Origin: Bacteroidota bacterium
Lineage (GTDB): Bacteria; Bacteroidota; Bacteroidia; Bacteroidales; VadinHA17
Length of the DNA stretch: 64,000 nucleotides
Assembly: GCA_011050615.1 (NCBI GenBank)
Contig: DRFJ01000057.1
Span: 1-64,000, forward strand
Direction: 5' to 3'
A model generated the notes under the pieces. The model searched no databases. It saw nothing but the letters and a program-made list of their open reading frames with translations, and was not told the origin of the DNA. Positions 35,120-58,714 of this stretch are shown here, piece after piece; position 1 is the first letter of the stretch, and the number at the start of each line of letters is the position of its first letter. The position numbers and the translations under genes are program-made.

Positions 35120-35148
35120 TTTACCAGAATAATTTTATTTAGTCTCAC

Positions 35149-40560: not shown

Positions 40561-41157
40561 TTATGGATCCTTTTTTTCACCTTTTTTAAAGATTGTCTTA
40601 AAGATAAGAGCTATGTCACCCCAAAAACTCCTGTTACGGTAGTATTCCAGGTTTATTCTTACCTTATCAGGCCATAGTATTTCATCATTGTATTTCTTTG
40701 GATCAGCAACAGACTCCAGAATCTCTTCTTCATTTGAGTATTTTATTGAGGCAGGGCCCGTTATTCCAGGCCTCAACTCCAGTATCTTCTTTTCCTCACC
40801 GCTCAATGTCTCATAGTATTCAGGAACATCAGGCCTGGGACCGACAAGACTCATATCGCCAGTAAGCACATTCCACAGTTCGGGCAATTCGTCAAGCTTA
40901 TATTTTCGGAGTCTGGATCCAAGTGGAGTGATTCTGTTTTCTCCCTTAACTGACACAGTGCTTCCTCCATGGTTGACAATCATTGTTCTGAACTTATAAA
41001 TTGTAAATGGTTTTCCATACCTTCCGGTTCTGTTCTGGCAAAAGAGTACAGGGCCGGGCATACTTATTTTAATCATTAATGCTATTACTATCAACAGGGG
41101 GCTAAGCAGCAGCAGTCCAAATATTGAAGCTATAATATCAAAAAGTCTCTTCGGCAT
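40561..41157 (-). CDS. PglC-type monotopic phosphoglycosyltransferase
   Basis: A 198-residue sugar transferase consisting only of the catalytic domain of the family. It has an N-terminal membrane-embedded helix (about 8-30), then MPGPVLFCQNRTGRYGK, KFRTM, KYKLDELPELWNVLTGDM and SLVGPRPDVPEYY motifs. It transfers a sugar phosphate from a UDP-sugar to undecaprenyl phosphate. The nearby PglE-type aminotransferase fits a diacetylbacillosamine-type substrate. It is the second initiating enzyme in the window. The longer one is at 17499. Confidence 0.9.
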   Translation of the reverse strand: MPKRLFDIIASIFGLLLLSPLLIVIALMIKISMPGPVLFCQNRTGRYGKPFTIYKFRTMIVNHGGSTVSVKGENRITPLGSRLRKYKLDELPELWNVLTGDMSLVGPRPDVPEYYETLSGEEKKILELRPGITGPASIKYSNEEEILESVADPKKYNDEILWPDKVRINLEYYRNRSFWGDIALIFKTIFKKGEKKDP

Positions 41158-43300: not shown

Positions 43301-43921
43301 CTAATGCTGAGCAGCTTTCCCCTTTAACCGGGTTTGATCTATGAACTCCACCAGCATATAACCATCCTTGAGTTTCTTCAATATAATCATACTGGGATTT
43401 TTAGAATGGGCCTTCATTACAGCAGCATTGTTACGTGAAATAGTTGACAAGCATCTAAAATTCATACGCCAGGCAGTATGATACATTATATCGTTCATAA
43501 CCCTTCCTATTCCACTCCCCCTGTATTGTTTATCAATCAACCGTCCGACAAAGCACGTTCTGTTTGCAAAGAACCGCAGAAAGAAATATCCAACCAGGTC
43601 CTCCTTGTCAAAGACCCCCATCATAAGGAAGGAAGAGTTTGCAAATTGTTTCTTTATACTGAGGAGGTCGAATCCGTGAGGCCTGAAATAATCAAGATCT
43701 TTTTTATTTTGTGAATTTATGAGCTTAAATAATGGTTCAGAGTCTTCCAGACTAAGCAGGCTGTATATGAATGGAGGCCGGGAAAAGTCCCTGAAAACTC
43801 CAGGAAGAACTTTGTACAGCCGGCTACGGTGGAGAAGTGAAAACATTTGTCCATTCACCCATTCAATTATTCTCCAGATAAACCTGAAATGATGTTTGAT
43901 GAAAATCAGGAATTTCTCCAA
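43301..43921 (-). CDS. GNAT-family N-acyltransferase
   Basis: A 206-residue protein with a GNAT core. The acetyl-CoA binding motif is RGSGIGRVMNDIMYH (about 138-152), preceded by VGYFFLRFFANRTCFVGRLID. It overlaps the ATP-grasp gene upstream by 16 bp, so it is translationally coupled to it. It may acylate an amino group on the sugar or on an amino acid added by the ATP-grasp enzyme. The substrate is inferred from context only. Confidence 0.75.
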   Translation of the reverse strand: MEKFLIFIKHHFRFIWRIIEWVNGQMFSLLHRSRLYKVLPGVFRDFSRPPFIYSLLSLEDSEPLFKLINSQNKKDLDYFRPHGFDLLSIKKQFANSSFLMMGVFDKEDLVGYFFLRFFANRTCFVGRLIDKQYRGSGIGRVMNDIMYHTAWRMNFRCLSTISRNNAAVMKAHSKNPSMIILKKLKDGYMLVEFIDQTRLKGKAAQH

Positions 43922-44934
43922 TTCAGGTATTTTTCAAGTTCATACTTAAGACCTTTCTTTACAGGCAGTTGCCACAGCAATTTACACCAGTTATGATTAC
44001 CTTCAATAAGCTCGGGGCCAAGCTCTGTAACAGCGATGTCCCAGCCAACAGACCTGTTTTCAGGAATATAAAGTGCAGCTGCTCTTGCAAGGTCAATAGT
44101 CTCATTCCAGTATGGAACCCTGAAACCTTTTATTTTTTGCCCCGTTACGGGATGAGTGTCTGCTTCCTCCCTGGTTATATCGCTATATATACCCGGCCCG
44201 TATACCAGGCCTGTTTCAATATCAACCGGAGCTGCAAGATTCCCTGCAGCAAGGTTATCAACATACGAATTTACACTTATCCTCAACCTGGCTCCGGGAA
44301 ATTCTACCCTGCCATCAATAAGTTGAGTGATTATACGTACGGTATTTAAACCTGACGGTGATAAGTCCATCAAATCCGGATGCTGTATGATGTAATCCTC
44401 CAGCAGATCAAAATTTTTAGACTCCATTAAGCTCAATAAGCTTTCAGGAGTATACTCTGAGCACCTTATCACCTCAACCTCTGCCCCCACCTGGCCTCCT
44501 GATGCTTTCATTACCAGTTTGCCTGAAGGGTTATCCAGCATCTTTCTCACCAGGGTGCTATCATTAAGCAGTTGCTTAATATCAGCATAACCGCGTTTAA
44601 AAAAGGGAGCATAAGAGTTAAGGAAAGATATTTTGTTCTGCAAAACATCACGGGATTTTTTGGGGTTCATAATTAACTGGTACTCATACATAAAACCTGA
44701 ACCAGCCCATAATTTTCTTTCGTCCTTGCCATGCATATAAAACCTGTAATAGAAATAGTCCAGAAGTGACATATTATACCTGAAGGATGACAGGACAATA
44801 TCAGTTATTAATGCTGGATAGGATTTACTACTTATTTGTTTAGCATAAGCCAGGAATTTTCTGAATCTCCGTTTATCCTGCTTTTGAAGGTAATAAATGA
44901 AGTATAATATTCTTTTTAAGTAGCTTACTACCAT
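43906..44934 (-). CDS. Sugar-transfer associated ATP-grasp protein
   Basis: A 342-residue protein of the ATPgrasp_ST (TupA-like) type. It has the nucleotide-binding MKASGGQVGAEVEVI segment, SGLNTVRIITQLIDGRVEFPGARLRI, and the metal-ligand segment VGWDIAVTELGPELIEGNHNW near the C-terminus. ATP-grasp enzymes couple a carboxylate to an amine, or similar, through an acyl phosphate. This is the seventh member in the operon and the most diverged from the six at 49747-56255. It overlaps the GNAT gene by 16 bp. Confidence 0.8.
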   Translation of the reverse strand: MVVSYLKRILYFIYYLQKQDKRRFRKFLAYAKQISSKSYPALITDIVLSSFRYNMSLLDYFYYRFYMHGKDERKLWAGSGFMYEYQLIMNPKKSRDVLQNKISFLNSYAPFFKRGYADIKQLLNDSTLVRKMLDNPSGKLVMKASGGQVGAEVEVIRCSEYTPESLLSLMESKNFDLLEDYIIQHPDLMDLSPSGLNTVRIITQLIDGRVEFPGARLRISVNSYVDNLAAGNLAAPVDIETGLVYGPGIYSDITREEADTHPVTGQKIKGFRVPYWNETIDLARAAALYIPENRSVGWDIAVTELGPELIEGNHNWCKLLWQLPVKKGLKYELEKYLNWRNS

Positions 44935-45037
44935 AAAGACAGATTATTATCTGATTGCCACAATTCTTCTTAATTAAAATCCTGGGTTAGACACCCTTCC
45001 AGGAAAGAGATAGAGAGGTAATAAGTCATAAAAATGT

Positions 45038-46249
45038 TCAGATATTGGTGAAATGAGCTGTAATAAGTCTATAGGAGATATCTACCGTGTAATTGTCATT
45101 GAAATGTTTATACCCGTTCAGACCGAGTTCTTTTCTCAATTCCTTGTTATTAGCAAGCAACATTACATTTTCAGAAATAGTATCAGTATCTCCTGCTTCT
45201 GACCATAGTCCGAAATTATTTTCCTGAATAATTTTACCCAGATCGGTACTTGTGTCTGTTGCTGCAATTACCGGCATCTTATATTCCATGAAGGATAGAA
45301 TCCTGGAGGGGAAATTTGGTATGGTAAACCTCTTATCCAGAAAAATCATACCAACGTCACAGGACTGTACGAGCATATTATATTCATTCTTGGCTAATTC
45401 CTTGAGAAGCATTATATTATCGCATGGTTCGTTATTTATCCAGTTCTCAATTTTATTATATTCCATTCCTGAGCCAATTATAATGAAATAGGTATCAGGT
45501 TTCCCCTTCTGTGTATTCAGGAAATCGATTATAAAATCGACACCCTGTGGTTTGCCAAGGTTCCCTCCGTAGATAAACACTGTTGCATCCATGGGAAGAT
45601 TATATTTTTCCCTGATAGATATTTTTTGTTTATCAGTTATTTCTTCATCAAATAATTCATGGCTGTTTGGATTAACCTCAATTTTATGAGGATCGACATC
45701 GGGGTTGTTTTCAATCAGATAATCCACATTTGCCTGGGACATACAACCAATATAATCAGAAATCTCATATAGTTTCCTCTCCAGTCTCCGCATATATTTA
45801 TACATTATACCCTTCTTATTTATCAATCCCAGATCAACTGCATTTTGCGGAAAAATATCTTTAAGCAGGAGGTAGGCAACAGCATTGTCTCTGCGTCTTA
45901 CATACTTAATTAGCGGTGTAAAGGTTATAGGTGGTGTGGAATAGATTATGAGGTCAAAGGTTGTTTCGGGGAAATATTTCTTGATAGTTTTCGAATACTG
46001 ATAATTGATCAACAAGGTGCCAAGCCATTTTTCCAGCACATTAGTCTTCTGTATATTTAAAGTTCTGACCTTCACTATTGAAACATTACCATCATTTACT
46101 AGTGTCGTTCCCTGCTTATATCTCCTTTCATTGGGTGTTAGAATAAATACCTTGTGGCCCTCCCTGCAAAATTTCCTCATCAGGTCGGGATAAATACCTC
46201 TGTCTTCTATATCATTTATTCTAAGTATTGTAACAAAAAGTATATTCAT
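45038..46249 (-). CDS. WbuB-like glycosyltransferase family 4
   Basis: A 403-residue GT-B transferase. The N-terminus (MNILFVTILRINDIEDRGIY, IYSTPPITFTPLIKYVRR, AYLLLKDIFPQNAVDLGLI) is of the WbuB/FnlD-like type, known to transfer L-FucNAc in O-antigen loci. The C-terminal nucleotide-binding half contains FIYGGNLGKPQGVDFIIDFL and EYKMPVIAATDTSTDLG. The UDP-L-FucNAc genes in the same operon agree with this donor. It is separated from the next gene by a 103-bp gap without a clear signal. Confidence 0.85.
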   Translation of the reverse strand: MNILFVTILRINDIEDRGIYPDLMRKFCREGHKVFILTPNERRYKQGTTLVNDGNVSIVKVRTLNIQKTNVLEKWLGTLLINYQYSKTIKKYFPETTFDLIIYSTPPITFTPLIKYVRRRDNAVAYLLLKDIFPQNAVDLGLINKKGIMYKYMRRLERKLYEISDYIGCMSQANVDYLIENNPDVDPHKIEVNPNSHELFDEEITDKQKISIREKYNLPMDATVFIYGGNLGKPQGVDFIIDFLNTQKGKPDTYFIIIGSGMEYNKIENWINNEPCDNIMLLKELAKNEYNMLVQSCDVGMIFLDKRFTIPNFPSRILSFMEYKMPVIAATDTSTDLGKIIQENNFGLWSEAGDTDTISENVMLLANNKELRKELGLNGYKHFNDNYTVDISYRLITAHFTNI

Positions 46250-46283
46250 AGAATTAGTCTATTCCATTACATTCAGTTATTAT

Positions 46284-47408
46284 TTATCTTGATTGCTGCA
46301 TAAAATCCAGCGCATCCCCTGAGCTCAAGAATTCCACATCCGGCCATTTCTTCACGATAGCTTTCAGCAGTTTTCGCAATTCTCCAAGTCCATATTTGCG
46401 GTTGGAATCGTCTATCCCGCCTGCAAAATTCCCCCTGTGGGTACTTATAATTGCCGGTTTACCCCATCTGAAAGCTGCTTCAACCTGTTTCATTGTAAAA
46501 CCTATACCATTATAACTAGCCTCTGTAGGTTCGAATGCACAATTACGCGTATAATATGTTAAACCTTCCGGTCCCTTCTGTCCTGTGATAAAATGCCTGT
46601 ATTTCAAATCCCCGCGGTTAACGCAATAAGGCATAGAATGATTGACATTCAGGAATCTGACTCCTGCCCCGGCTACCACTCTATCAAATTCAGGGTTAAA
46701 AATACCATTACTTGGCACAAAAACCCTGGGTGAAAAACCAAATATCTCCCAGAAAAGTATCACACTATCTTTAATTGAATTTACCAGAAAGGGTTTTTGG
46801 TCTTCTGAATCAAAATAAAACTCAGCCCTGAATCCTTTTGCAATAGAATGTATGCCAGGGACTGCCAGGGAAACAAAGCCTTCATCAAATGCGAATAAAA
46901 GGTCTTTATCCCCTTCCCTTAGCTTCTGCATCCAGAGCTGTACGGTAATATGCTCTCGTCCATGTAGTTCAGGCACAAAGATACCTGCATCCATTCCTTG
47001 CTTCCACATTTCGAATACATTGCTCTCAGGGTAGTATCTTTTGAGAGTATCTGTAAATTTCTCATAAAAATACGCATTAAATCCTGAGGAGCGTATTTTC
47101 CCGAAATCAGGATTTGTCATGCTGGTTACAGCGGTCATAACTGCCGGCTTGTTGTGCTGATCTCTTACTTCATAAAGTACTTCGAACATTTGTTCAAGGT
47201 CTTCCCTCGTTTCGATGGTTTCGTACCTGTCGTATCTTGCTGATCCTATATTCAAACCTGCTGAGGATAAACGTTCATAGGCATTTTCTGAAGGCATTCT
47301 TGTGCTTCCATAATCATCACATTCGAGAACGAGGATCTTACGGGATGTACGCCAGCCCGGTATATTCTTAAGATTTAACCGTATGCTGTTTTTAATATTT
47401 GCAATCAT
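46284..47408 (-). CDS. Polysaccharide deacetylase-like protein (DDYGS type)
   Basis: A 374-residue cytoplasmic protein with the segment KILVLECDDYGSTRMPS near residue 24, HGREHITVQLWMQKL near 153, and STHRGNFAGG near 320. It appears related to the NodB fold (metal-site DD and late histidine). It is a paralogue of the protein at 56270, which has ESDDWGSIRMPS and SHRINYAGF. Both start with a NLPGWRT or NIPGWRT segment. The catalysed reaction is not known to me. A deacetylase acting on the repeat unit or on a precursor is likely. Confidence 0.7.
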   Translation of the reverse strand: MIANIKNSIRLNLKNIPGWRTSRKILVLECDDYGSTRMPSENAYERLSSAGLNIGSARYDRYETIETREDLEQMFEVLYEVRDQHNKPAVMTAVTSMTNPDFGKIRSSGFNAYFYEKFTDTLKRYYPESNVFEMWKQGMDAGIFVPELHGREHITVQLWMQKLREGDKDLLFAFDEGFVSLAVPGIHSIAKGFRAEFYFDSEDQKPFLVNSIKDSVILFWEIFGFSPRVFVPSNGIFNPEFDRVVAGAGVRFLNVNHSMPYCVNRGDLKYRHFITGQKGPEGLTYYTRNCAFEPTEASYNGIGFTMKQVEAAFRWGKPAIISTHRGNFAGGIDDSNRKYGLGELRKLLKAIVKKWPDVEFLSSGDALDFMQQSR

Positions 47409-47424
47409 TGATCAGACATAAGTT

Positions 47425-48636
47425 TTATTCCTTAACCAGGCACTCATAATAAAGTTCAAGGTATTCTTCAAAGCGATCCTTTGCCGAAAAATTCCTGAGT
47501 GCACTCTCGCGGCACACTGTTGCACTATATCTGTCACTATTATTTATTATCTCCCATATAGCATTATGAAGCTCCCTGATGTTTCCTTTTTCTACTACTA
47601 TACCCGTATTATCATCAACTGATTCCGGGCTCCCCCCTGTTTTATAAGTAATGACAGGAGTGCCACAGGCGAGGGATTCAATATTAACAGAAGGGAAATT
47701 ATCAACATATGTTGGATTAATAAAAGCTTGTGCCCCCGAATATAGTGCTGCCAGTTCTCCAATGTTCTCGGTACGGGATATTCCTTTTATTTCATGGCCT
47801 GCCTGTTTCATGTGCTTACCTGTAAGGCCAACAAGGACTATCTCTATTTCCTTATCCAGAATTGACCTCAATTTGATGAAATCGCCCAGACCTTTGTTTT
47901 TAGTCCATGTACCTGCAACACCAATGATATATTTCCTGTCAATCTTGTACTTTTCTTTTATGGCGTGAGAAGAAACAGGTTTAAAATTGTCAATATCAAC
48001 GCCATTATTTATGACTTTAATCTTATACTCTGAAAGAAATGACTTTTCCAGGAATCTGGCCAGCCATTCAGAGGGAGACACCAGGATCATATTTTTCATA
48101 CCGCTGAACAGCTCTTTCTTCTGCTGAAAATTTTTTCTGGAGTTATCGGCAAACCAGCTTATCGGATAAGCTGAGGTGAGGGGGCAGTCAAAACACTGAC
48201 TCTTCCATTTATTACAAGAGACATGTTCAAAATGACAACAATGGCCGGTAAAAGGCCAGCAGTCATGAAAAGTCCACACCAGGGGTTTAGTCCGTTTTTT
48301 GAGGTAGTCGAAGAGCACCTGTATATTTAGATAGTAACCATGGAGGTTATGAAAATGAATAATATCAGGATCCAGATCATCAATTTTACGGACAAGAGCT
48401 TTTGTTGCACCATATGAACCAAATCCATGACGATCAAAAAGCCGTGTTTTAACCAGATGAAAGGCCAGGTCCAGTTTATTTCCAATTTTTATCAGCTCAG
48501 ACTTACTTTCATTAACGGTTCTGGCATAAGCAATTATACTCTCTCCCCCTCTTTCAATTACCAGTCTGCCAATATCTTCAGCAATGCGTCCGTGTGAGCC
48601 GGAGTTGGCAGTCGTATTTATCTGGAGCACTTTCAT
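47425..48636 (-). CDS. Glycosyltransferase family 4
   Basis: A 403-residue GT-B glycosyltransferase with an N-terminal acceptor domain (MKVLQINTTANSGSHGRIAE, HFHNLHGYYLN, WTFHDCWPFTGHCCHFEH) and a donor domain (VINNGVDIDNF, GVAGTWTKNKGLGDF, NPTYVDNFPSVNIESLACGTPVITY). The C-rich stretch around residue 150 (HFEHVSCNKWKSQCFDCP) is common in this subgroup. It overlaps the next glycosyltransferase gene by 4 bp. Confidence 0.88.
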   Translation of the reverse strand: MKVLQINTTANSGSHGRIAEDIGRLVIERGGESIIAYARTVNESKSELIKIGNKLDLAFHLVKTRLFDRHGFGSYGATKALVRKIDDLDPDIIHFHNLHGYYLNIQVLFDYLKKRTKPLVWTFHDCWPFTGHCCHFEHVSCNKWKSQCFDCPLTSAYPISWFADNSRKNFQQKKELFSGMKNMILVSPSEWLARFLEKSFLSEYKIKVINNGVDIDNFKPVSSHAIKEKYKIDRKYIIGVAGTWTKNKGLGDFIKLRSILDKEIEIVLVGLTGKHMKQAGHEIKGISRTENIGELAALYSGAQAFINPTYVDNFPSVNIESLACGTPVITYKTGGSPESVDDNTGIVVEKGNIRELHNAIWEIINNSDRYSATVCRESALRNFSAKDRFEEYLELYYECLVKE

Positions 48637-49721
48637 TCGGGGAGAATAAATTTATAAAACTGTTCGCCTATTTCTCCAATAGAAAATTTATTTATCGATT
48701 CTTTAGCCTTTGCACCAATCTTCTCTCGTAGCATCTTATCATCCATTAATTGTTCCAGCCTTTCCCTGAATGAAGAATAGTCATTTACTTTTATCAAAAA
48801 GCCGTCTTCCCCATCGGTAATCATTTCTGACGGACCTGCAACACAATCAAATGCCACTACCGGCAATGCGGCAGACATGGCCTCGCCGATTACATTTGGG
48901 AATCCTTCAGAATACGAAGTGGAAACATAGATGCTGCTCTCCAGGTAGAACCTGTCAATATCATTAATCTTACCCATAAGGAAAACTGAATTGCCAGCAT
49001 TCAACCTGGCTATTAGCTCATTCAGCCTTACCATGTTTTTCTGCTTCAGGGCATCACCTCCAACAATGATTAATTTCCATCCCCTCCTGTTTATATCACA
49101 AAACAATTCAATCAGTTTATCATGATTTTTTGAATTTATTAACCTGCCTATCGACAGCACAATTTTTTCTCTTTTCTTAGAAATATTATCGAAGGTTACA
49201 AAACGGATGGGATTGCCAATCACAGAAATATTACCGTTATTGAAATGTTTATCGTATATTCTCTTGGCAGTATATGTCTGGGCAATTATGCCTTTTGCTC
49301 TTGGGTAGAGCCATTTTCTCAGCAGTGATTGTAATAATTTGAATTTCTTTTCAGGGCTGCAACGGTCTGATATATATACCTGGTAGGGAGAAGCCATCAG
49401 AGCCAGTAAGACAAAACTATTCCAGTACTCTCCGAAGCTGAGAACAGAATCAGGTTTTATTCTTCTGACCTCCTTCCTGAGGTAAGACAATCTGATGATG
49501 GTACAAATGAACCTCAGCCTGTCATTAAAAACAGACGTTGGCAGGTGGATTTTCAGGTTTTCGGGTACCTGATAAAAGAAAACAGGATCTTTACCGTACA
49601 GAACCATATGAACCTCAAGATCGTCTTTATTACAGAAATAGTATGCCAGTTCAGACATTACTCTCTCCATTCCTCCTACCCCCATGGACGGAATAACCAA
49701 ACACAGCTTTTTCTTTCTCAT
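48633..49721 (-). CDS. Glycosyltransferase family 4 (AmsD-like)
   Basis: A 362-residue GT-B glycosyltransferase (VIPSMGVGGMERVMSELAYY, ISDRCSPEKKFKL, LSIGRLINSKNHDKLIELF, TSYSEGFPNVIGEAMSAALP and VVAFDCVAGPSEMI). It is similar to enzymes that add a galactose- or GalNAc-type sugar in amylovoran and capsule loci, but the donor cannot be told from sequence. It is translationally coupled (4-bp overlap) to the gene at 47425. Confidence 0.88.
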   Translation of the reverse strand: MRKKKLCLVIPSMGVGGMERVMSELAYYFCNKDDLEVHMVLYGKDPVFFYQVPENLKIHLPTSVFNDRLRFICTIIRLSYLRKEVRRIKPDSVLSFGEYWNSFVLLALMASPYQVYISDRCSPEKKFKLLQSLLRKWLYPRAKGIIAQTYTAKRIYDKHFNNGNISVIGNPIRFVTFDNISKKREKIVLSIGRLINSKNHDKLIELFCDINRRGWKLIIVGGDALKQKNMVRLNELIARLNAGNSVFLMGKINDIDRFYLESSIYVSTSYSEGFPNVIGEAMSAALPVVAFDCVAGPSEMITDGEDGFLIKVNDYSSFRERLEQLMDDKMLREKIGAKAKESINKFSIGEIGEQFYKFILPE

Positions 49722-49746
49722 TTCAACTACTAGGTCTTATATTATA

Positions 49747-50772
49747 TTAGTCATCAGTATCCTTAACAGAAAACACAATGCCATCCACCATCCACGCATA
49801 GGGATTGAAGGTCCCGGGATGGTAATCAAGGTCTTCATCCCAGTAGCCATGGTTGAACTGATCTTCATCATAGCCAAACCCATAGCTAACCTCAGCAATA
49901 AGGGGCCGCCCATTGTGTAAAACAAAGTCGAAGGCAGCACACTGCAGCTTTAATCTGTTTGCGACACTGAAAGCAATTTTTAAGGCTTCTTCAGGTATCA
50001 TTGACATATCATAATCGATCATTCCGCTTCCTGATGCCCTGAAATCACCCGGCCGCACATTCCTTCTCAGAGCAAAACACCTGTTGAATACATATGTTAC
50101 CCTTATATCGTGAGTATTATCCGGTATGAAATCCTGAAAATATATATAACCTCGTTCTCGCCCATGCACTATTGAATAAGGAGTAGGGATAAAGAACCTG
50201 ACTATGCCCTTGAAAACCTCATTTAAATCTGCCTTTCCTTTTTTGTACTGCCTCAATCGTTCTTTCAGACCAGTGTATGCATTAAATATCCGGAAGCCTT
50301 TTCCAAATGCCCTGTTTACTAATACCCTGGCCTCTCTTTTTGTTTTAACAAGTTTAACATTATCAGAACCTGACCCTCCCCTAAGTTTAAAAACCTTGGG
50401 AAATGTAGTATTAGCTATCCATTCCAGTGCATCATGCTTCGAGAAGAATGCGTAAGAACTTGCCATAGGGGCATTTACTGCTTCGAGAAGGTATTTCTGG
50501 CCCAGTTTGTCATCGAAATGCCAGTTAGATCTGAAATCAGGATAAACTGCCCTGCCGGACATCTCAACTGAATATAGCAACTGTTTTGCAAACAGTGTGT
50601 CTTTGGGGCTTATATGAAAATGATGCCACATAAATGCATCACAATCAGAAAGCTGTGACATTACATCACTTTTGTAACAGTCAATCCGTTTCCAGGGTAT
50701 ATTCCTGGATTCACAATATTCTATCCAGTATTTACTGAAGGATCCTTCTCTATGATGAATTCCAATCTTCAC
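49747..50772 (-). CDS. RimK-like ATP-grasp ligase, copy 1
   Basis: A 341-residue ATP-grasp enzyme. It has PKVFKLRGGSGSDNVKLV (ATP binding), YFQDFIPDNTHDIRVTYV and AAFDFVLHNGRPLIAEVSYG with the metal-binding glutamate. The N-terminal domain has CDAFMWHHFHISPKDTLFAK. It is a close paralogue of the protein encoded just upstream at 50787. Together they form a tandem duplication. ATP-grasp enzymes of the RimK type add amino acids to proteins or small molecules. In this locus the acceptor is likely to be a sugar or a lipid-linked glycan. Confidence 0.85.
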   Translation of the reverse strand: MKIGIHHREGSFSKYWIEYCESRNIPWKRIDCYKSDVMSQLSDCDAFMWHHFHISPKDTLFAKQLLYSVEMSGRAVYPDFRSNWHFDDKLGQKYLLEAVNAPMASSYAFFSKHDALEWIANTTFPKVFKLRGGSGSDNVKLVKTKREARVLVNRAFGKGFRIFNAYTGLKERLRQYKKGKADLNEVFKGIVRFFIPTPYSIVHGRERGYIYFQDFIPDNTHDIRVTYVFNRCFALRRNVRPGDFRASGSGMIDYDMSMIPEEALKIAFSVANRLKLQCAAFDFVLHNGRPLIAEVSYGFGYDEDQFNHGYWDEDLDYHPGTFNPYAWMVDGIVFSVKDTDD

Positions 50773-50786
50773 TGTTAGTGTAATCT

Positions 50787-51830
50787 TTAATCCAATAAAT
50801 TAATCTGCCCTGACTTAACCAGTTCCAGTACATTATCTACCATCCATCCATACGGATCAAATTTGCCCGGATAGTAATTCATATCGTGATCCCAGTAACC
50901 GTGATGATAATATTCCGGTGCGGTTCCTGACCCGTAACTTATTTCAACAATCATCGGCCGGCCATTATACACGACAAAATCAAATGCTGCCGTCTGCAGT
51001 TTAAGTCTAGCTGCCATATCAAATACAATTTTTATTGCATCTTCCGGTATATGATCAGGGTCATAATCATAGTTTTCACTACCTGAAGCCCTGAAGTCAC
51101 CGTCCCGCACTTTTCTTCTCAGTCCGTAACATTTTTTATCTACATAAGTGAGTCTTATATCGTGATCATTATCCGGAACAAAGTCCTGGAAATAGACATA
51201 CCCGCGTTCTTTACCGGATATATGAGAGTACCTGGGCGGAAAAGCAAGTCGTACAATACTTTTTACCACGCCGAACAGCGTTTCCTTGCCCTGGCGGTAT
51301 TTCAGCCATCTATCCTTCAGGGAAAATGAAGAATTAAACAACCTGAAACCGCTCCTGAATGCTTTCCTTGCCAACCTTACTGCATGACTACGGGTTCTCA
51401 CCAACCTCACATTTATTGATCCTGATCCACCCCTTAACTTAAAAACCTTTGGGAACTCTGCTTTCCTTATCCATTTAATAGCATCATTGAGTGAGTAGAA
51501 GACATGGGAGGGCACCAGCGGTGCTTTTATTGATTCAAACAAGTATTTCTGACCTATTTTATCATCGAAGTGCCAGCAGGTCCTGAAATCAGGGAAAACA
51601 ATTTTCCCTGACATCTCCAGCGAATAAATCAACTGCTTTGCAAACAGTATATCCTTCGGGCTTTCATGATTAAAATGCCACATCAATGCATCACAATCTT
51701 TAATTTGTTCAATAATATCACTGCCGTAACAGTTTACAAGTTTATAAGATATTTTATTTTTCTCGCAATAGTCTATCCATCCTGTTGTATAGTCTTCATT
51801 ACGATACTGAATTGCTATCTTAATATCCAT
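50787..51830 (-). CDS. RimK-like ATP-grasp ligase, copy 2
   Basis: A 347-residue paralogue of the protein at 49747. Matching blocks are PKVFKLRGGSGSINVRLV, YFQDFVPDNDHDIRLTYV and AAFDFVVYNGRPMIVEISYG. The N-terminal part has CDALMWHFNHESPKDILFAK. The two copies are end to end with 14 bp between them. The key ATP- and metal-binding positions are kept in both, so both are likely active, perhaps with different substrates. Confidence 0.85.
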   Translation of the reverse strand: MDIKIAIQYRNEDYTTGWIDYCEKNKISYKLVNCYGSDIIEQIKDCDALMWHFNHESPKDILFAKQLIYSLEMSGKIVFPDFRTCWHFDDKIGQKYLFESIKAPLVPSHVFYSLNDAIKWIRKAEFPKVFKLRGGSGSINVRLVRTRSHAVRLARKAFRSGFRLFNSSFSLKDRWLKYRQGKETLFGVVKSIVRLAFPPRYSHISGKERGYVYFQDFVPDNDHDIRLTYVDKKCYGLRRKVRDGDFRASGSENYDYDPDHIPEDAIKIVFDMAARLKLQTAAFDFVVYNGRPMIVEISYGSGTAPEYYHHGYWDHDMNYYPGKFDPYGWMVDNVLELVKSGQINLLD

Positions 51831-51855
51831 TTCGCTAAATAATCAGGCAGGCAGG

Positions 51856-52944
51856 CTATATTTCATCATCATCCGTCCAGAATGGTCCATAACCTGCTTC
51901 AGGTGAAGAAAATCCCGGGTTATTAGTATTCCATTCCAGGAGTTTTGGCTCTCCCAGGCTATTAATGCACACGTCCCATGCAATTAATCGCGTATACGGA
52001 AATAGTTTATGAGCGTTTTTACACTTTTCCAGTATATCCTGATACATAGGAATTTTGATATCGGAAATTAAAAATCCTGTGTTAGGGTGTCTGTCGGTGA
52101 CTTCAAGACCCAGTGCCGGATCATAGCAATAATCAGACGGCTTACCGGACAGATCTATGTAGACATAATAACCTCCCATTGTCCCGCTATCAACATAGGT
52201 CCCATCTCTTCCAAAGCGTAGCCACACATATTTAACCACTGTTGACCCATCTTTTCTCATAAATGTGTTTACACGCAATGTATTAACACTGTGAGGATAT
52301 AAATCATTAAGGAGTTTATATTGTTTTACCTGCGGCTGTATGACATAGTTTTTATTTGGATTAAGCTTCTCCGTCATAAAACCTGAAGCTTCAATAATTC
52401 TCACCTGTTGCCCACCCCAGCCTCCTTCTTCCTTGATTACAACTTTTTTATCATATTCTGACATAAATTTTTCAACCTCTCCCCTCTCAACAACTTTAAG
52501 TTCTGAATCAAGGAACATATCACAGATATACAGGAAGAGAGGTTTTACTGCAAAATCACCAAAAAGCCTGTAATCATATGTTTTGAGATCGTTCATATAG
52601 AGGGCCGGCTTAGGATTCAGCTTAGGCAGCAACACAAATCTGAAATAGTCATAAGGGATCCATCCCCTGATAAACTCTCCTCTGACCTCGGTATAAAAAG
52701 ACAGGTAAGGCCACCAGGCTTTGCTCCCGAACCTTTGCCTGCAATACTCTTTGATATCTTTCTTAACCTTTCTGTTCATGATCGTTACGCCCTTCCTTTT
52801 CTCAACTTCTCTCCTGAGATAATGCCCTTCATTCCGTATATGAGCCAGGATTATCTTCAGTTTAACATTTTCCGACCATTTCTCAATCATCATCCTTATA
52901 CGAATGATAATTTTCCCGAAATAAAGCCTGATCAAATATCTCAT
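51856..52944 (-). CDS. Sugar-transfer associated ATP-grasp protein, copy 1 of 3
   Basis: A 362-residue ATPgrasp_ST-type protein. It has YDYRLFGDFAVKPLFLYI, VVIKEEGGWGGQQVRIIE (ATP binding), SVNTLRVNTFMRKDGS and LIAWDVCINSLGEPKLLEWN, which carries the metal-binding glutamate and asparagine. It is one of three tandem copies (with 52949 and 54025) of the same protein. They keep the active-site segments and differ in the first 70 residues and in surface regions. TupA, in teichuronopeptide synthesis, is the best-known member of this group. Confidence 0.85.
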   Translation of the reverse strand: MRYLIRLYFGKIIIRIRMMIEKWSENVKLKIILAHIRNEGHYLRREVEKRKGVTIMNRKVKKDIKEYCRQRFGSKAWWPYLSFYTEVRGEFIRGWIPYDYFRFVLLPKLNPKPALYMNDLKTYDYRLFGDFAVKPLFLYICDMFLDSELKVVERGEVEKFMSEYDKKVVIKEEGGWGGQQVRIIEASGFMTEKLNPNKNYVIQPQVKQYKLLNDLYPHSVNTLRVNTFMRKDGSTVVKYVWLRFGRDGTYVDSGTMGGYYVYIDLSGKPSDYCYDPALGLEVTDRHPNTGFLISDIKIPMYQDILEKCKNAHKLFPYTRLIAWDVCINSLGEPKLLEWNTNNPGFSSPEAGYGPFWTDDDEI

Positions 52945-52948
52945 TCAG

Positions 52949-54028
52949 TCAGATTTCTTCATCATTGGGCCAGAAAGGTCCGAATTTAGCCTCTTCTGTC
53001 GGAAAATCAGGATTATTGGCATTCCACTCAAGAAGTACTGGTTTCCCGGAACTATCAATGCAAACATCCCAGGCTATTAACCTTGAATAAGGGAATTTTT
53101 TATGTGCCACCTTACATTTCTCAATAATCTCTCCAAACATCGGTATCTTAACATCCGAGTAAAGGTAACCGGTATTTTTATGTCTGTCTCCTATCTTCAT
53201 CCCTGTCTTATGATCGTAACTGTAAGGTTCAGGATTCCCGGCCAGGTCAAAGAAAAGGAAATCACCACCCATAGTACCATTGTCGACTCTCATGCCATCT
53301 TTACCAAATCGGAGCCATACATATTTTGGAATGACAGAACCATCTTTTTTAAGAAATGTATTGACCCGGAAGGTATTGACACTTTCCGGGTAAAGATCAT
53401 TTAAGACTTTATATTGCTCAACAAAGGGCTGGATAACATAATTTTTATCATTCGGCAGTTCATAAGGGCTGAAAGATGCCGGGTTAATAATTCTTACCTG
53501 CTCACCGCCCCATCCTGATTCTTCCTTTATGACAATATTATCATTATATTCTGACATAAAAGATTTTACATCATCTTTCCCTACGGTTTCCAGATCTGTA
53601 TTGAAGAACATTCCTGAGATAAAAAGAAACAAAGGTTTTAATGCAAAATCACCAAAAAGCCTGTAGTCATAGGTCTTTAAATCATTCAGATAAAGTGCAG
53701 GTTTAGGATTGATCCTTGGCAGGAACACAAACCTGTAATAATCATACGGCAACCATCCCTCCAGAAACTCTCCTCTGATTTCTGTATAAAGAGCGAGGTA
53801 ATGCCAGTAATTTTTACTTCCGAACCTATCTTTTGAATATTCTTTAATTGACTTTTTTAACTTATTACTTAAAACTTTAGTTTCTTTACTTTTAGTTACC
53901 ACATTCCGTCCCATATGAGCATCATTTCTGAGATATGCAAGAATAAGTTTATGCAGGAGGGCATCTGTAAATTTTTCAAAGATCATTCTTAGCCGAATGA
54001 TTATCTTACCAAGGTAAAGCCTTATCAT
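52949..54028 (-). CDS. Sugar-transfer associated ATP-grasp protein, copy 2 of 3
   Basis: A 359-residue paralogue of the proteins on both sides. It has YDYRLFGDFALKPLFLFI, IVIKEESGWGGEQVRIIN, SVNTFRVNTFLKKDGS and LIAWDVCIDSSGKPVLLEWN. The end (FGPFWPNDEEI) matches copy 1 (YGPFWTDDDEI) closely. Only 4 bp separate the two genes and the other neighbour overlaps by 4 bp, so the three are probably translated as a unit. Confidence 0.85.
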   Translation of the reverse strand: MIRLYLGKIIIRLRMIFEKFTDALLHKLILAYLRNDAHMGRNVVTKSKETKVLSNKLKKSIKEYSKDRFGSKNYWHYLALYTEIRGEFLEGWLPYDYYRFVFLPRINPKPALYLNDLKTYDYRLFGDFALKPLFLFISGMFFNTDLETVGKDDVKSFMSEYNDNIVIKEESGWGGEQVRIINPASFSPYELPNDKNYVIQPFVEQYKVLNDLYPESVNTFRVNTFLKKDGSVIPKYVWLRFGKDGMRVDNGTMGGDFLFFDLAGNPEPYSYDHKTGMKIGDRHKNTGYLYSDVKIPMFGEIIEKCKVAHKKFPYSRLIAWDVCIDSSGKPVLLEWNANNPDFPTEEAKFGPFWPNDEEI

Positions 54029-55131
54029 TTATTCAGATGCTTTACAGAATATTCCAGATCCCAGATATCATCATCCTCAGACCATAAGGGACCATATTTA
54101 GCCTCGAAAGGATAAAAGCCGGGTTCTTCAGCATTCCATTCGATGAGCTTTGGTTCACCCGTGTTTTCTATACAAACATCCCAGCCAATTACACGGGCAT
54201 AGGGAAATTTCTTGTGTGCCTGTCTGCATTTTTCCAGCATATCGTGGAACATAGGAATTTCAATATCTGAAAATACATAGCCCGTATTTTTGTGTCTGTC
54301 TCCTATTTCTATGCCGGTCTGCCATTCATATATCTTGCTATCAGGATTCCCATTTAAATTAAAATACAGATAATAACCACCGGATGACAGGTTGTCAACT
54401 TTAAGGTTATCAGCACCAAACCTGAGCATAACATATATAATCTTTACCAATCCGTCCTTTCTTAAGAAAGAAATTATCCTGAAAGTGTTAACACTGTCAG
54501 GATACAGGTCATCCAGTACTTTATACTGCCTAATATAGGGCTGTATAACATAGTTTTTCTTCTTATCCAGTTCTTCCGGAACAAATTCTGAAGAATGAAG
54601 TATACTGACCTCCTTACCACCACGACCACCTTCCTGTTTTATAACTATAGTATCATTATAATCAGAAAGAAATTTTATTAGCCGTTTTCTATCAATAATT
54701 TCCATGTCCGGATCAATAAACATACCTGAAACATAAATCAGGAGCGGTTTGATAGCGAAGTCTCCGAAAAGCCTGTAGTCATATGTCTTCAGGTCATTAA
54801 TTAGAACACCCGGTCTGGGGTTAAGATTTGGCAATAAAATAAATACATAGTAATCGTAAGGCATCCACCCGGGTACAAATTCTCCTCTTATTTCAGTATA
54901 AAGTGCCAGGTAAGGCCAGTAAGCAGTAGTGCCAAACTTATGCTTTGAGTAGTCTTTTATTGTTTTCAATAAACGCCTGTTTGTTATTCGCACTCCCTTT
55001 CGGCGAATAACACCTTTTCTCAACCTGTTTGCCTTTGCCCTTGCATTGAAAAAAATCCATTTCTTATAGAAATAATGAAACCACTTCTGGAGGGTTAATA
55101 TAAAACGCCAGATACTATTCCCTGAGCCCAT
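54025..55131 (-). CDS. Sugar-transfer associated ATP-grasp protein, copy 3 of 3
   Basis: A 368-residue paralogue of copies 1 and 2. It has YDYRLFGDFAIKPLLIYV, IVIKQEGGRGGKEVSILH, SVNTFRIISFLRKDGL and VIGWDVCIENTGEPKLIEWN. The ATP-binding loop is GGRGG here and GGWGG or SGWGG in the others, and the C-terminus is longer (LEYSVKHLNK). It is the most diverged of the three. It overlaps copy 2 by 4 bp. Confidence 0.85.
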   Translation of the reverse strand: MGSGNSIWRFILTLQKWFHYFYKKWIFFNARAKANRLRKGVIRRKGVRITNRRLLKTIKDYSKHKFGTTAYWPYLALYTEIRGEFVPGWMPYDYYVFILLPNLNPRPGVLINDLKTYDYRLFGDFAIKPLLIYVSGMFIDPDMEIIDRKRLIKFLSDYNDTIVIKQEGGRGGKEVSILHSSEFVPEELDKKKNYVIQPYIRQYKVLDDLYPDSVNTFRIISFLRKDGLVKIIYVMLRFGADNLKVDNLSSGGYYLYFNLNGNPDSKIYEWQTGIEIGDRHKNTGYVFSDIEIPMFHDMLEKCRQAHKKFPYARVIGWDVCIENTGEPKLIEWNAEEPGFYPFEAKYGPLWSEDDDIWDLEYSVKHLNK

Positions 55132-55142
55132 CTTTGTCCTTA

Positions 55143-56255
55143 TTATTTAAGTGCCCAGTGATTATTAATACAATATTCATAAACTTCATCGGTGAATTCA
55201 CCAAAAAACAAAGAGCCATGATATTGAGCAAATCGTATGGTGCCTCCGTTGATGTTTACCTCAATCATCCTCCATCTGCGTTCCGAGTCATAACAAAGAT
55301 CAAGGCATACCACTCCGGCGTAAAATATTTTTCCGGCAATTTTAAGTGCTGTTTCCTTCAATCCTTCGAAATCAGGAATTTCCTGAGTGAACCTTGCACC
55401 GGTATCAGGATGTTCAATATACTTTTTACCATATTTATCCACTGCAAAACCATTCATTGCCCCATCCTGTCTTATCATTGTAACAATACCTCCAGCCGTT
55501 TCATTATCCAGTGAACCCCCAACACCCATCCTCAGGACAACATTAACAATATGTAAGTTATTATCCTTAACAGAACGATAAATATTTACCCGCAAGGTAT
55601 TTATTCCGCTCTTATTGAACTGCTCATAGAATGAACCTTGCCTTATTCTTTCCTGCACCAAAAAGTTCTTCTTATTCCTTATAAGCGTAGCAAGTTCATC
55701 CTTATTCCTGGGGAAATATACATTCTGACCCCCGTAAGAATCCCTGTTGGGCTTAACGACCACCGGGTAATTTAGTTTGCCGGAGATGAACTCAATGTCA
55801 CTGAAGTCAACAGGATTCAGGTCACTATCCAGCCATTCACCGTCTACATTATGAAAATAATCTTCAGGGAAAATATTGCCCGGGAACCAGTGGTTATAAA
55901 AACTTTTATATGTAAGATATTCAACTGTTTTAGTATGATTTAAAGTAGGCTCGATATCGCTTACAAATATTTCTTCCGGTATGTACTTTGGATTTGCCAC
56001 ACCTGATATACTGGAACACACCCTTAAAGTAGCCATATTCAGCCTCCTGCTGAAGGGTTTCCAGAATTCCTTATGAGCGGTTTCTACAGATCGTTCACAT
56101 GGCTTATTGAAGTCCGGATATAAATCGAAAACCTTATTAAACCTTCTTTTCCACAGAATATGTGCTCCTCTCCTGATCAACAAATAGCTGATTACCCCCT
56201 TAAGTCGCTCTTTAAGAGGCAGTTTATTATTCTGAATTATTATTCTATACATCAT
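55143..56255 (-). CDS. ATP-grasp protein of the sugar-transfer associated group, divergent
   Basis: A 370-residue protein. It has VVVKPNRDSYGGQNVYF (ATP binding), QFNKSGINTLRVNIYRSV, and VVCLDLCYDSERRWRMIEVN with metal-binding glutamate and asparagine near the C-terminus. It keeps the order of ATPgrasp_ST motifs but is clearly separate from the tandem triplet. It begins the run of six ATP-grasp genes in transcription order, 14 bp after the deacetylase-like gene at 56270. Confidence 0.8.
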   Translation of the reverse strand: MMYRIIIQNNKLPLKERLKGVISYLLIRRGAHILWKRRFNKVFDLYPDFNKPCERSVETAHKEFWKPFSRRLNMATLRVCSSISGVANPKYIPEEIFVSDIEPTLNHTKTVEYLTYKSFYNHWFPGNIFPEDYFHNVDGEWLDSDLNPVDFSDIEFISGKLNYPVVVKPNRDSYGGQNVYFPRNKDELATLIRNKKNFLVQERIRQGSFYEQFNKSGINTLRVNIYRSVKDNNLHIVNVVLRMGVGGSLDNETAGGIVTMIRQDGAMNGFAVDKYGKKYIEHPDTGARFTQEIPDFEGLKETALKIAGKIFYAGVVCLDLCYDSERRWRMIEVNINGGTIRFAQYHGSLFFGEFTDEVYEYCINNHWALK

Positions 56256-56269: not shown

Positions 56270-57406
56270 TCAGACTTCAGTTATCAATTTACTTAATTGT
56301 AAGGAGGTCATAAATTCTATGTCAGGCCAGCGTCTGAGAGCTTCTGTGAGCAGTTGTTTCAGCAACACAAGAGACCGGTCCCGGTTCTTTTCATCAACAA
56401 AGCCGGCGTAATTTATACGGTGACTGGCTATTATTGCTGGCTTGTTCATACTGAATGCGATTGACATATCTCCTAAACATCTACCTACATGATCCCTTAT
56501 TCCGGAGTTAAACAATGATGGTTCAAAGATTGAATTCCTGACCAGGTAAATTTGCCCGAATTTATTCTTTTTCCCGAGGTAGACATTATGGTAAATACTT
56601 TTTTGTCCTGGAACCGGTTCACAGATCTTGCGTATACCCTGAAAAATATTAACCTCTTTTTCAAGGACTGCGTTATTATGGTCAGGGCTCCATATATAAT
56701 TAGGCGGTATTATTGTTCTGGATTTGTATTTAAAGAGTTTTTCAAATATGTCAAGTCCCTCAAGATAAACTTTAAGTTTTTCCTCTTTGTCTCTTAAAGA
56801 ACTGTATTTTGTGGCCTCAACAAAGTAGTTACCGAGGCCTTCAGGACCCAGGGTTAAATTTCCCGGCATTTCATTTTCAAAACCAAAATGAACAGCCTCA
56901 TTGCCCTTTTGAAGAGCGTCCATGAAAAGACTGACATTCAGATGTTCCCTGGCATGATACTGGGGAAAGAAAATTCTGTTTGTTATTCCTTCATTCCATA
57001 AACTGAAATTTTTGGTATGCTCTGGATACCTCTTAAAAGTGTCAGTTATTAACTCATAATAATACTTTTTAAAGTCATCTTTCCTTATTCTTTCAAAATC
57101 AGGGTTAGCCACCACACAGTTTGCAGTAAATACGGGATTATTACCATTCTTGTCCTTAAAAGTTTTCAGGAGGTTAAAAAGTAATTCCAGGTCATCCTGG
57201 CTTAAGAGCGTATCATATCTTTCATACGCAATCCTGTCAACAGGGTAACCTGCATTTAAACATTTCTGATACACTTCACGTGAAGGCATCCTTATGCTTC
57301 CCCAGTCATCAGACTCTATTACAACTATCTTACGCTTTGTACGCCAACCAGGTAAATTGGTGTACATGCGTGAGAGTAAAGAACGGAAAGTCATATGATT
57401 AGTCAA
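56270..57406 (-). CDS. Polysaccharide deacetylase-like protein (DDWGS type)
   Basis: A 378-residue paralogue of the protein at 46284. It has NLPGWRTKRKIVVIESDDWG near residue 17, HAREHLNVSLFMDAL near 165, and ASHRINYAGFVD near 340. The DD and late histidine would be the metal site of a NodB-like fold. The family is usually described only as polysaccharide (de)acetylase-like. A pair of such genes flanking an ATP-grasp array is notable. Confidence 0.7.
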   Translation of the reverse strand: MTNHMTFRSLLSRMYTNLPGWRTKRKIVVIESDDWGSIRMPSREVYQKCLNAGYPVDRIAYERYDTLLSQDDLELLFNLLKTFKDKNGNNPVFTANCVVANPDFERIRKDDFKKYYYELITDTFKRYPEHTKNFSLWNEGITNRIFFPQYHAREHLNVSLFMDALQKGNEAVHFGFENEMPGNLTLGPEGLGNYFVEATKYSSLRDKEEKLKVYLEGLDIFEKLFKYKSRTIIPPNYIWSPDHNNAVLEKEVNIFQGIRKICEPVPGQKSIYHNVYLGKKNKFGQIYLVRNSIFEPSLFNSGIRDHVGRCLGDMSIAFSMNKPAIIASHRINYAGFVDEKNRDRSLVLLKQLLTEALRRWPDIEFMTSLQLSKLITEV

Positions 57407-57436: not shown

Positions 57437-58714
57437 CTACAATAGCTTCTTTAAACTCTCTATAACCGGTACCGTGTCGGTATAAAATGCTGCAATTATC
57501 GGGTTTCCTATAAAGGTCATAAGACCGTAATAGTCCATGCCCATCCTTATCGCCACAGTGCAAAAAAGGGCCAGAAAGGGTAGGGACAAAACCTGAATAA
57601 ATATTATTCCCTTTACCTCACGGAAAGAGGTAATGAATATGATAATAAAAGCCAGCATAAAGGTACTTGCCACAACAATATACCTTCCACCTGACGGTAC
57701 AAGGCTAAAAATATTTGCAGCCCCATACAATAAAAGTGAATAACAGAGAAGTGATGTAAGATCCTTCCTTTCCTTCAGTACTTTTCTTCCGAATAGATAA
57801 ATATAGATAACCATGGCATAGATAACCCATTTTACAGCCTGGTTAGAATAAATCATATACCAGTTCAGGGCTTCCCTGGCCAGACCTACTGATTCTGCGT
57901 AGTCGGGATTTGTATATGCAATTACCCTGCTATAAAAAACACCGGGCAAAAATGAGAGGGCTGACCGGACATCGAGCAGGTTAATTTCTCTAATGAATGC
58001 AGTTGCAATAAAGAAGACCAGGTAAATATTAGTCCTGTTTTTCAAGACATAATATATACCCAGCATGCCTATCGGAAACATGAATGAGAAATGGAAAAAG
58101 ACTGATATTAAAGCCCATACCAGCTTTTTCTTATTTCCATCAAGAAGATAGGGAAGGGTACCATAAAGGAAGATCTGGGCAGCAGTCCACATCCTGAAGC
58201 CGTTAATATTCCATATTGGATTAAGCAATGCAAAGGAGAAAATATAAACGAGGACCAGGAGGGTGACTTTTCCCTCCATTTTTTCGATCACGAACCAAAT
58301 ATTTCTTGAATAGAAGTAGCCGAAAATAGCCCCGAAAACTGTGAAAAGTATAACCGGATTGGCTGTAAGCCTGGAGACCAGAAAAGTAATAAGCGGTGAG
58401 GCAATATCAACATAGCCTGTACTTTCGGAATAAAAAGAACTCCAGAGTTCTTCAAGGTTCATTTTAGAATGGGCATACCGGAGAAATAACCTGGCATACC
58501 GGTCCGAATCGGCACCACCTTCCTGAGCTATGATAAATGTTAATCCCAGGAAAATACAAAATAACCAGAAAACATTTTTTGCCCAGGGCCTGTCCCAGTG
58601 TCTCAAGGCTCCAAGTGTTACTCCAAAAGGCCAGAAGAGGAAACTTATATAATAATTCATCCCTTCCTGCCTGTTTGCATAACTGAATAGTCTTTCCTGT
58701 ATTGCCCTGTCCAC
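57437..58714 (-). CDS. EpsG-like polysaccharide polymerase (Wzy)
   Basis: A 425-residue integral membrane protein with about ten hydrophobic segments (e.g. NVFWLFCIFLGLTFIIAQEG, LLVLVYIFSFALLNPIWN, VIYAMVIYIYLFG). It has an EpsG-type layout and GGADSDRYARLF in an early loop. It probably polymerises the repeat units at the outer face of the inner membrane. It lies 3 bp from the next glycosyltransferase gene. Wzy sequences are highly diverged, so the call rests on topology and position. Confidence 0.75.
   Translation of the reverse strand: MDRAIQERLFSYANRQEGMNYYISFLFWPFGVTLGALRHWDRPWAKNVFWLFCIFLGLTFIIAQEGGADSDRYARLFLRYAHSKMNLEELWSSFYSESTGYVDIASPLITFLVSRLTANPVILFTVFGAIFGYFYSRNIWFVIEKMEGKVTLLVLVYIFSFALLNPIWNINGFRMWTAAQIFLYGTLPYLLDGNKKKLVWALISVFFHFSFMFPIGMLGIYYVLKNRTNIYLVFFIATAFIREINLLDVRSALSFLPGVFYSRVIAYTNPDYAESVGLAREALNWYMIYSNQAVKWVIYAMVIYIYLFGRKVLKERKDLTSLLCYSLLLYGAANIFSLVPSGGRYIVVASTFMLAFIIIFITSFREVKGIIFIQVLSLPFLALFCTVAIRMGMDYYGLMTFIGNPIIAAFYTDTVPVIESLKKLL

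What the first reader, a model, noticed from the sequence alone, without database searches (positions are those of the whole stretch)
43906..56255. Array of seven ATP-grasp enzymes in one polysaccharide operon
Six consecutive genes (49747-56255) and a seventh at 43906 encode ATP-grasp ligases: two RimK-like, five of the sugar-transfer associated type. Most polysaccharide loci have none or one. They are in one transcription unit with glycosyltransferases, a flippase and a polymerase. The locus also encodes carboxylate-activating enzymes elsewhere. The simplest explanation is stepwise addition of several amino acids or a short peptide to the repeat unit, comparable to teichuronopeptide or aminoacylated O-antigens. 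That outcome is inference.
Basis: partly seen in the sequence, partly recalled or inferred. Interest (0 to 1): 0.9.

Follow-up and report, generated by a model that had tools for sequence, protein, structure and literature searches.

The report
Seven amide-bond enzymes in sugar-coat operon
A bacterial gene cluster that builds a surface sugar polymer carries seven intact copies of enzymes that normally join amino acids together, and relatives in other bacteria carry one to six of them, so the polymer is probably decorated with several amide-linked amino acids, a chemistry not yet shown for this gene set.

Summary
Seven intact minus-strand ORFs encode ATP-grasp enzymes: five pass Pfam ATPgrasp_ST (PF14397) and two pass RimK (PF08443). 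They lie in a 29-gene directon (largest gap 103 nt) with Wzx, EpsG, PglC-like, bacillosamine-type and FnlABC-type genes. ATP and metal ligands are kept in all five ST copies. The RimK pair has E-x-S where RimK has E-x-N, invariant in 24 relatives, so a subfamily signature rather than decay.

The array is not unique. Trees give four orthologous classes: ST_A, ST_C, RimK-like and an expandable ST_B. Balneolaceae (including cultured Fodinibius salsisoli and Aliifodinibius salipaludis) and another species of the same genus carry 3-6. The window's 2+3 tandem copies are local duplications. Models sit closest to RimK, LysX/ArgX and tubulin-tyrosine ligases.

Most likely the operon makes a lipid-linked repeat unit that these ligases decorate with several amide-linked amino acids. 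Amide ligation is well supported; amino-acid identity and a stepwise peptide remain inference. The enzymes are not TupA family (no PF14305 match). A type IX secretion anchor is disfavoured: only 3 of 18 carriers have PorU, against 65% background. New variant of a known kind.

The parts
43906..44934 (-). ST_A: ATP-grasp ligase (PF14397); orthologues sit beside or near PglC-like initiating transferase genes
   Evidence: tree; synteny
49747..50772 (-). RimK-like ATP-grasp 1 (E-x-S metal motif)
50787..51830 (-). RimK-like ATP-grasp 2; model m5b684111966c closest to RimK/LysX/ArgX (Z about 20-22)
51856..52944 (-). ST_B1 ATP-grasp ligase (tandem copy)
52949..54028 (-). ST_B2 ATP-grasp ligase (tandem copy)
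54025..55131 (-). ST_B3 ATP-grasp ligase; model mbc808615bca8 (pLDDT 91) closest to RimK, LysX/ArgX and tubulin-tyrosine ligases
55143..56255 (-). ST_C ATP-grasp ligase, conserved next to the PDA1 gene
56270..57406 (-). PDA1: conserved protein with deacetylase-like motifs, no Pfam family; found with the RimK-like gene in most loci
46284..47408 (-). PDA2: paralogue of PDA1
57437..58714 (-). EpsG-family polymerase candidate (PF14897)
58718..59830 (-). GT4a glycosyltransferase, part of the conserved core
59906..61594 (-). asparagine-synthetase-like protein (weak)
61659..63122 (-). Wzx-type flippase (PF13440)
63204..64000 (-). CapD/PglF-like nucleotide-sugar 4,6-dehydratase; the gene continues to contig position 65123
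48633..49721 (-). GT4b glycosyltransferase, part of the conserved core
47425..48636 (-). glycosyltransferase family 4
45038..46249 (-). glycosyltransferase family 4
43301..43921 (-). GNAT-like acyltransferase overlapping ST_A by 16 nt; same pair in the G002 locus
40561..41157 (-). PglC-like initiating sugar-phosphate transferase (PF02397)
39584..40543 (-). PP-loop protein, weak WbuX sugar amidotransferase match
37666..38808 (-). DegT/LegC-like sugar aminotransferase
37047..37604 (-). hexapeptide acyltransferase
32779..36189 (-). FnlA-, FnlB- and FnlC-like genes (35149, 34001, 32779): UDP-L-FucNAc-type pathway

Best explanation
The directon makes a cell-surface or exo-polysaccharide. A PglC-like enzyme starts the repeat unit on a lipid carrier with a 4-amino-4,6-dideoxy sugar, GT4 transferases extend it (with an L-FucNAc-type sugar), Wzx flips it and EpsG polymerises it. 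Before flipping, the ATP-grasp ligases form several amide bonds on the lipid-linked unit: each activates a carboxylate with ATP as an acyl phosphate and joins it to an amine, most likely coupling amino acids to the sugar amine or carboxylate and then to each other. Three ligase classes (ST_A, ST_C, RimK-like) are core. ST_B is the adjustable class, here tripled, as RimK-like is doubled. Shown: family, intact active sites, synteny, duplication history, fold kinship. Inferred: amino acids as substrates, order of steps, number of residues added, membrane association.
For: Families and intact catalytic residues (K, R, D and E kept in all five window ST copies; D and E in 24/24 RimK-like). Folds closest to amino-acid or peptide ligases: RimK-like model against RimK Z 21.7, LysX 20.6, ArgX 20.3; ST_B3 model against RimK 14.1, ArgX 13.6, tubulin-tyrosine ligase about 13. 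Conserved synteny with EpsG, GT4a, PDA1, PglC and DegT across Bacteroidia and Balneolaceae. PGA_cap (poly-glutamate capsule) genes in two relatives' loci, beside the RimK-like gene in one and one gene away in the other. Purifying constraint on all tandem copies (pN about 0.24-0.29 against saturated pS). Basic N-terminal stretches, helical in the model. Precedent: an ATP-grasp domain amidates GlcA in the C. jejuni capsule (PMC11800379).
Against: No substrate is known for any PF14397 protein retrieved here. The only characterised polysaccharide precedent I could read attaches amino-alcohol phosphates to a uronic acid, not amino acids. The locus has no uronic-acid dehydrogenase, although a UDP-glucose-dehydrogenase-like gene exists elsewhere. 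Copy number varies 1-7, so each copy need not mean one added residue. The RimK-like pair lacks the usual Asn metal ligand.
Confidence: 0.6

Rival explanations
1. Each ligase class adds one single amide substituent to a different sugar of the repeat unit (several aminoacyl groups, no peptide chain); duplicated copies give alternative substituents.
For: Class ST_A is tied to the PglC/PglD/DegT initiating-sugar genes and ST_C/ST_B to the EpsG/PDA1/GT4a block, as if acting on different residues; relatives manage with one or two ligases.
Against: Tight clustering and runs of up to four ST_B/ST_C copies are at least as easily read as successive steps.
Confidence: 0.3
2. The ligases amidate uronic-acid carboxylates with amines or amino alcohols, as Cj1438 does in the Campylobacter capsule, rather than building peptides.
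For: Only biochemically proven ATP-grasp reaction in capsule synthesis that I could read (PMC11800379); a UDP-glucose-dehydrogenase-like gene is in the genome.
Against: No uronate genes in the directon; the enzymes are not PF14305; folds closest to amino-acid ligases.
Confidence: 0.15
3. The extra copies are redundant dosage or drifting paralogues; only one or two reactions occur.
For: Two RimK-like and three ST_B copies are lineage-specific tandem duplications; another species of the same genus keeps one of each.
Against: Copies are 52-62% identical, synonymous sites are saturated while proteins stay constrained, no active-site loss; Balneolaceae expanded ST_B independently.
Confidence: 0.15
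4. The ligases build an aminoacyl or peptidyl linker on lipopolysaccharide to which the PorU sortase anchors type IX secretion cargo, a different route from the Wbp/Vim pathway.
For: Known linkers carry N-seryl, N-glycyl or N-alanyl sugars (PMC7468200, PMC11969387); this genome has PorU and a type B cargo plus PorP just upstream; a Por_Secre_tail LRR protein lies in one relative's locus.
Against: Only 3 of 18 sampled module carriers have a PorU match against 254 of 376 others, Fisher p = 2e-5, not corrected for kinship.
Confidence: 0.05

Closest known systems
Sugar-transfer associated ATP-grasp family (Pfam PF14397)
   Same: Five of seven proteins pass its curated cut-off; polysaccharide gene context
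   Different: Family has no reaction established that I could find; here three orthologous classes and tandem runs together with RimK-like ligases
RimK / LysX / ArgX amino-acid ligases
   Same: RimK-like pair has the same fold (Z about 20-22) and significant profile similarity
   Different: 14-19% identity, E-x-S instead of E-x-N, below NCBIfam RimK cut-off, sits in polysaccharide loci
Campylobacter jejuni Cj1438 C-terminal ATP-grasp domain (TupA-like)
   Same: ATP-grasp enzyme forming an amide on a capsule sugar (PMC11800379)
   Different: Fused to a glycosyltransferase, one enzyme, substrate GlcA plus serinol or ethanolamine phosphate; described as TupA-like, whereas these proteins do not match PF14305
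Teichuronopeptide synthesis (TupA, alkaliphilic Bacillus)
   Same: Proposed polymer of sugar and amino acids
   Different: No PF14305 match; Gram-negative Wzx/EpsG-type locus (teichuronopeptide details from general knowledge)
Wbp/Vim linking-sugar pathway of Porphyromonas
   Same: Aminoacylated amino sugar in a Bacteroidota surface polysaccharide
   Different: Amino acid there is attributed to the GNAT-like VimA, not ATP-grasp; most carriers of this module lack PorU

Membership tests
ATPgrasp_ST (PF14397) | score over the curated cut-off of 31.4 bits | tested here: met
   98.6-148.2 bits for 43906, 51856, 52949, 54025, 55143
ATPgrasp_ST (PF14397) | ATP-grasp catalytic Lys, Arg, Asp, Glu, Asn kept | tested here: met
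   all five window copies; K in 82/82, D in 81/82, E in 79/82, N in 77/82 relatives
RimK alpha-L-glutamate ligase | RimK ATP-grasp domain over Pfam cut-off | tested here: met
   25.8 and 23.5 bits against 21
RimK alpha-L-glutamate ligase | NCBIfam TIGR00768 cut-off | tested here: not met
   41.2 bits against 143.4, tested for 49747 only
RimK alpha-L-glutamate ligase | E-x-N metal-binding end motif | tested here: not met
   E-x-S in 24 of 24 subfamily members
TupA (PF14305, teichuronopeptide) | match to the ATPgrasp_TupA model | tested here: not met
   no match at E up to 1 for any of the seven; the model exists in Pfam as PF14305
Wzx plus EpsG/Wzy-type polysaccharide locus | flippase, polymerase candidate, initiating transferase, glycosyltransferases together | tested here: met
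   PF13440 294 bits, PF14897 54 bits, PF02397 203 bits, several GT4
Type IX secretion linker pathway | co-occurrence with the PorU sortase | tested here: not met
   3 of 18 carriers against 254 of 376 others; this genome itself has PorU
Aminoacylated or peptidylated polysaccharide | covalently bound amino acids in the polymer | not testable with these tools
   needs composition analysis

The most novel reading that the evidence does not exclude
A ribosome-free assembly line of up to seven ATP-grasp ligases builds a defined short peptide, one enzyme per bond, on a lipid-linked surface saccharide: an ATP-grasp counterpart of the Mur ligases, with length tuned by tandem duplication of one ligase class (ST_B).
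Probability: 0.25. Interest if true: 0.85.

Novelty: new variant of a known kind. Interest (0 to 1): 0.6.

Why it matters
ATP-grasp genes are seen in polysaccharide loci, but PF14397 had no reaction that I could find. Here is a conserved module with a natural series of one to seven ligases across Bacteroidota, including cultured halophiles, so copy number can be compared directly with polymer composition. If the ligases add amino acids, this would be a sizeable undescribed route to sugar-peptide polymers and a set of ligases that work on lipid-linked sugars.

Tried and rejected
Type IX secretion anchor: attractive from the upstream PorP/type B cargo genes and the N-alanyl/N-seryl linkers in the literature, but PorU is depleted among module carriers. 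TupA membership: no PF14305 match (the genome search had no positive control, so hmmscan carries the weight). Pseudogene or decay reading of the RimK pair from E-x-S: rejected, the Ser is invariant. PDA1/PDA2 as CE4 deacetylases: profile comparison with CE4 relatives gave nothing, Pfam only weak GH57. ST against RimK-like profile comparison: no significant match; their relation rests on fold. First genome-contig scan with the divergent ST_A as lead sequence found nothing. No solved structure matches ST_B3 by sequence. Intrinsic terminators: 24 against 13.5 expected in shuffles, on both strands and mostly inside genes, not read as operon breaks. Papers on ATP-grasp arrays in exopolysaccharide loci: none found in the held library; the 2009 ATP-grasp amidoligase survey is not held.
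Full report
Observation. The window lies at bases 1-64000 of contig C8 (102,861 bases) of a 2.74 Mb, 71-contig, 85% complete genome. Five match Pfam ATPgrasp_ST (PF14397) at 98.6-148 bits (cut-off 31.4); 49747-50772 and 50787-51830 match RimK (PF08443) at 25.8 and 23.5 bits (cut-off 21). The whole genome has exactly these five PF14397 proteins. They lie in a run of 29 co-directional genes from 32779 to contig position 65123 with gaps of -16 to 103 nt; that they are one transcript is inference.

Gene content. The run encodes a Wzx flippase, an EpsG-type polymerase candidate, four GT4 glycosyltransferases, a PglC-like initiating transferase, a CapD/PglF-like dehydratase, a DegT/LegC-like aminotransferase, a hexapeptide acyltransferase, FnlA/B/C-like genes, a CE4 deacetylase, a GNAT protein overlapping ST_A by 16 nt, an Asn-synthetase-like and a WbuX-like protein (both weak), and two copies of a protein called PDA here. 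From established pathways this suggests a repeat unit that starts with a 4-amino-4,6-dideoxy sugar and contains an L-FucNAc-type sugar (inference).

Active sites. The five ST proteins share the ATP lysine (K143 of 43906-44934), R200, R218, D299, E311 and N313. Across 82 distinct PF14397 proteins from fetched loci, the Lys is kept in 82, the Asp in 81, the Glu in 79 and the Asn in 77. In the RimK-like pair the Asp and Glu are kept in 24 of 24 relatives, but the last ligand is Ser instead of Asn in all 24, so this is a subfamily signature. Tandem copies are 52-62% identical with saturated synonymous change and pN of 0.24-0.29: all copies are under protein-level constraint.

Structure. The RimK-like model (pLDDT 76, only five sequences) matches RimK at Z 21.7 over 267 residues, LysX 20.6 and ArgX 20.3, above D-Ala-D-Ala ligases at about 17.5; by sequence profile the best solved relatives are also RimK and LysX. 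The ST_B3 model (pLDDT 91) matches RimK at Z 14.1, ArgX 13.6, tubulin-tyrosine ligase and TTLL6/11 at about 12.5-13; many ATP-grasp folds are close behind, so this supports an amide ligase but does not name the substrate. The window's ST proteins begin with a basic stretch (K+R 8-12, D+E 0-3 in 45 residues), and in the ST_B3 model it is a helix, compatible with work at the membrane (inference).

Relatives. In a sample of 395 genomes of the phylum, 30 have PF14397 proteins; 33 of 393 in the order do. Multi-copy arrays recur: five in a row in one genome and four ST plus two RimK-like in another. The second genome-contig scan named organisms: Fodinibius salsisoli, Aliifodinibius salipaludis and Balneolaceae MAGs, plus a Bacteroidia MAG with two ST_C copies. 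Their loci share the order GT4a - EpsG - PDA1 - ST_C - ST_B and RimK-like; further on, where the contig was read that far, lie ST_A - PglC - PglD - DegT - CapD. Another species of the window's genus (G002) has an equivalent locus with only three ligases (one ST_A, one ST_B, one RimK-like), and two other species of the genus have none. Still simpler loci have a RimK-like gene with EpsG and PDA genes and no ST gene. PDA homologues were found with the RimK-like gene in most loci read in full, 11 of 13 by my count; the exceptions are L052 and L104.

History. The FastTree phylogeny separates ST_A, ST_B, ST_C and the RimK-like class. Window ST_B1-3 form one clade with the single ST_B of G002 (support 1.0) and group apart from it (support 0.86), so they arose by tandem duplication in this lineage; the two RimK-like copies pair with support 0.87. 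Balneolaceae expanded ST_B separately. The window's seven is the largest count seen, six the next.

Mechanism. I commit to amide-bond formation on the lipid-linked repeat unit before flipping, most likely with amino acids. Shown: enzyme superfamily, intact catalytic residues, gene context, conservation. Inferred: amino acids as substrate, which carboxylate is activated, and order. PGA_cap genes lie in two relatives' loci, one beside the RimK-like gene (L051) and one a gene away (L017), a hint towards polyamide. Against a simple peptide count: copy number is fluid. The nearest tested reaction is the C-terminal TupA-like ATP-grasp domain of C. jejuni Cj1438, which joins serinol- or ethanolamine-phosphate to GlcA (PMC11800379); a uronate reading therefore stays open, though the directon has no uronate genes and the only dehydrogenase candidates are elsewhere.

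A tested alternative. Known type IX secretion linkers are aminoacylated sugars: N-seryl and N-glycyl uronates made by Wbp/Vim (PMC7468200) and N-alanyl deoxyhexose of unknown pathway (PMC11969387). This genome has PorU and, upstream of the directon, PorP and a type B cargo gene. However, only 3 of 18 module carriers in the sample have PorU, against 254 of 376 others (p = 2e-5, uncorrected for kinship). The module's general role is therefore unlikely to be cargo anchoring.

Comparison and novelty. The proteins belong to PF14397 and, more loosely, to the RimK superfamily; they are not TupA (PF14305). No paper describing such arrays was found in the held library, which is incomplete. I rate it a new variant of a known kind: the enzymes are of known families, but the conserved multi-class, copy-variable array and its product are undescribed as far as could be checked.

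Limits. The genome is a multi-contig draft without a name here; no transcript, polymer or enzyme data exist; presence counts rest on sampled species; PDA has no assigned family and its deacetylase-like motifs (DD, HGREH) are only suggestive.

Noticed in passing
L015 5261-13739 (contig C8 65261-73739): OmpA-like/PD40 protein, PorP/SprF protein and a 1779-aa T9SS type B cargo on the same strand just upstream of the polysaccharide directon.
   Followed up: partly
L017 2192-4751 (G002:C24): Three tandem PP-loop ATPase-like ORFs in the equivalent locus of another species of the genus, a parallel array of a different activating-enzyme type; one tested has no Pfam match.
   Followed up: no
window 56270-57406 and 46284-47408: Conserved PDA family with ESDDWGS, HGREH and SHR motifs, no Pfam family, found with RimK-like ATP-grasps in most loci.
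   Followed up: partly
window 49747-51830: RimK-like subfamily with invariant E-x-S in place of E-x-N at the metal site.
   Followed up: partly
L047 10247-16363 and L050 1-4240: Separate runs of divergent PF14397 genes (five and at least four) in genomes outside the module, so tandem expansion arose more than once.
   Followed up: no
L048 11439-16022, L051 3679-6381: Large leucine-rich-repeat proteins, one with a T9SS C-terminal domain, directly after the ATP-grasp array in Balneolaceae genomes.
   Followed up: partly
window 42078-43262 and 36225-36956: Two operon genes without any Pfam match; 36225 has a 50% identical homologue in the G002 locus.
   Followed up: no
L102 14471-17786: Two ketoacyl-ACP synthase III-like genes in a RimK-like/EpsG locus without ST genes, hinting at an acyl substituent there.
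   Followed up: no
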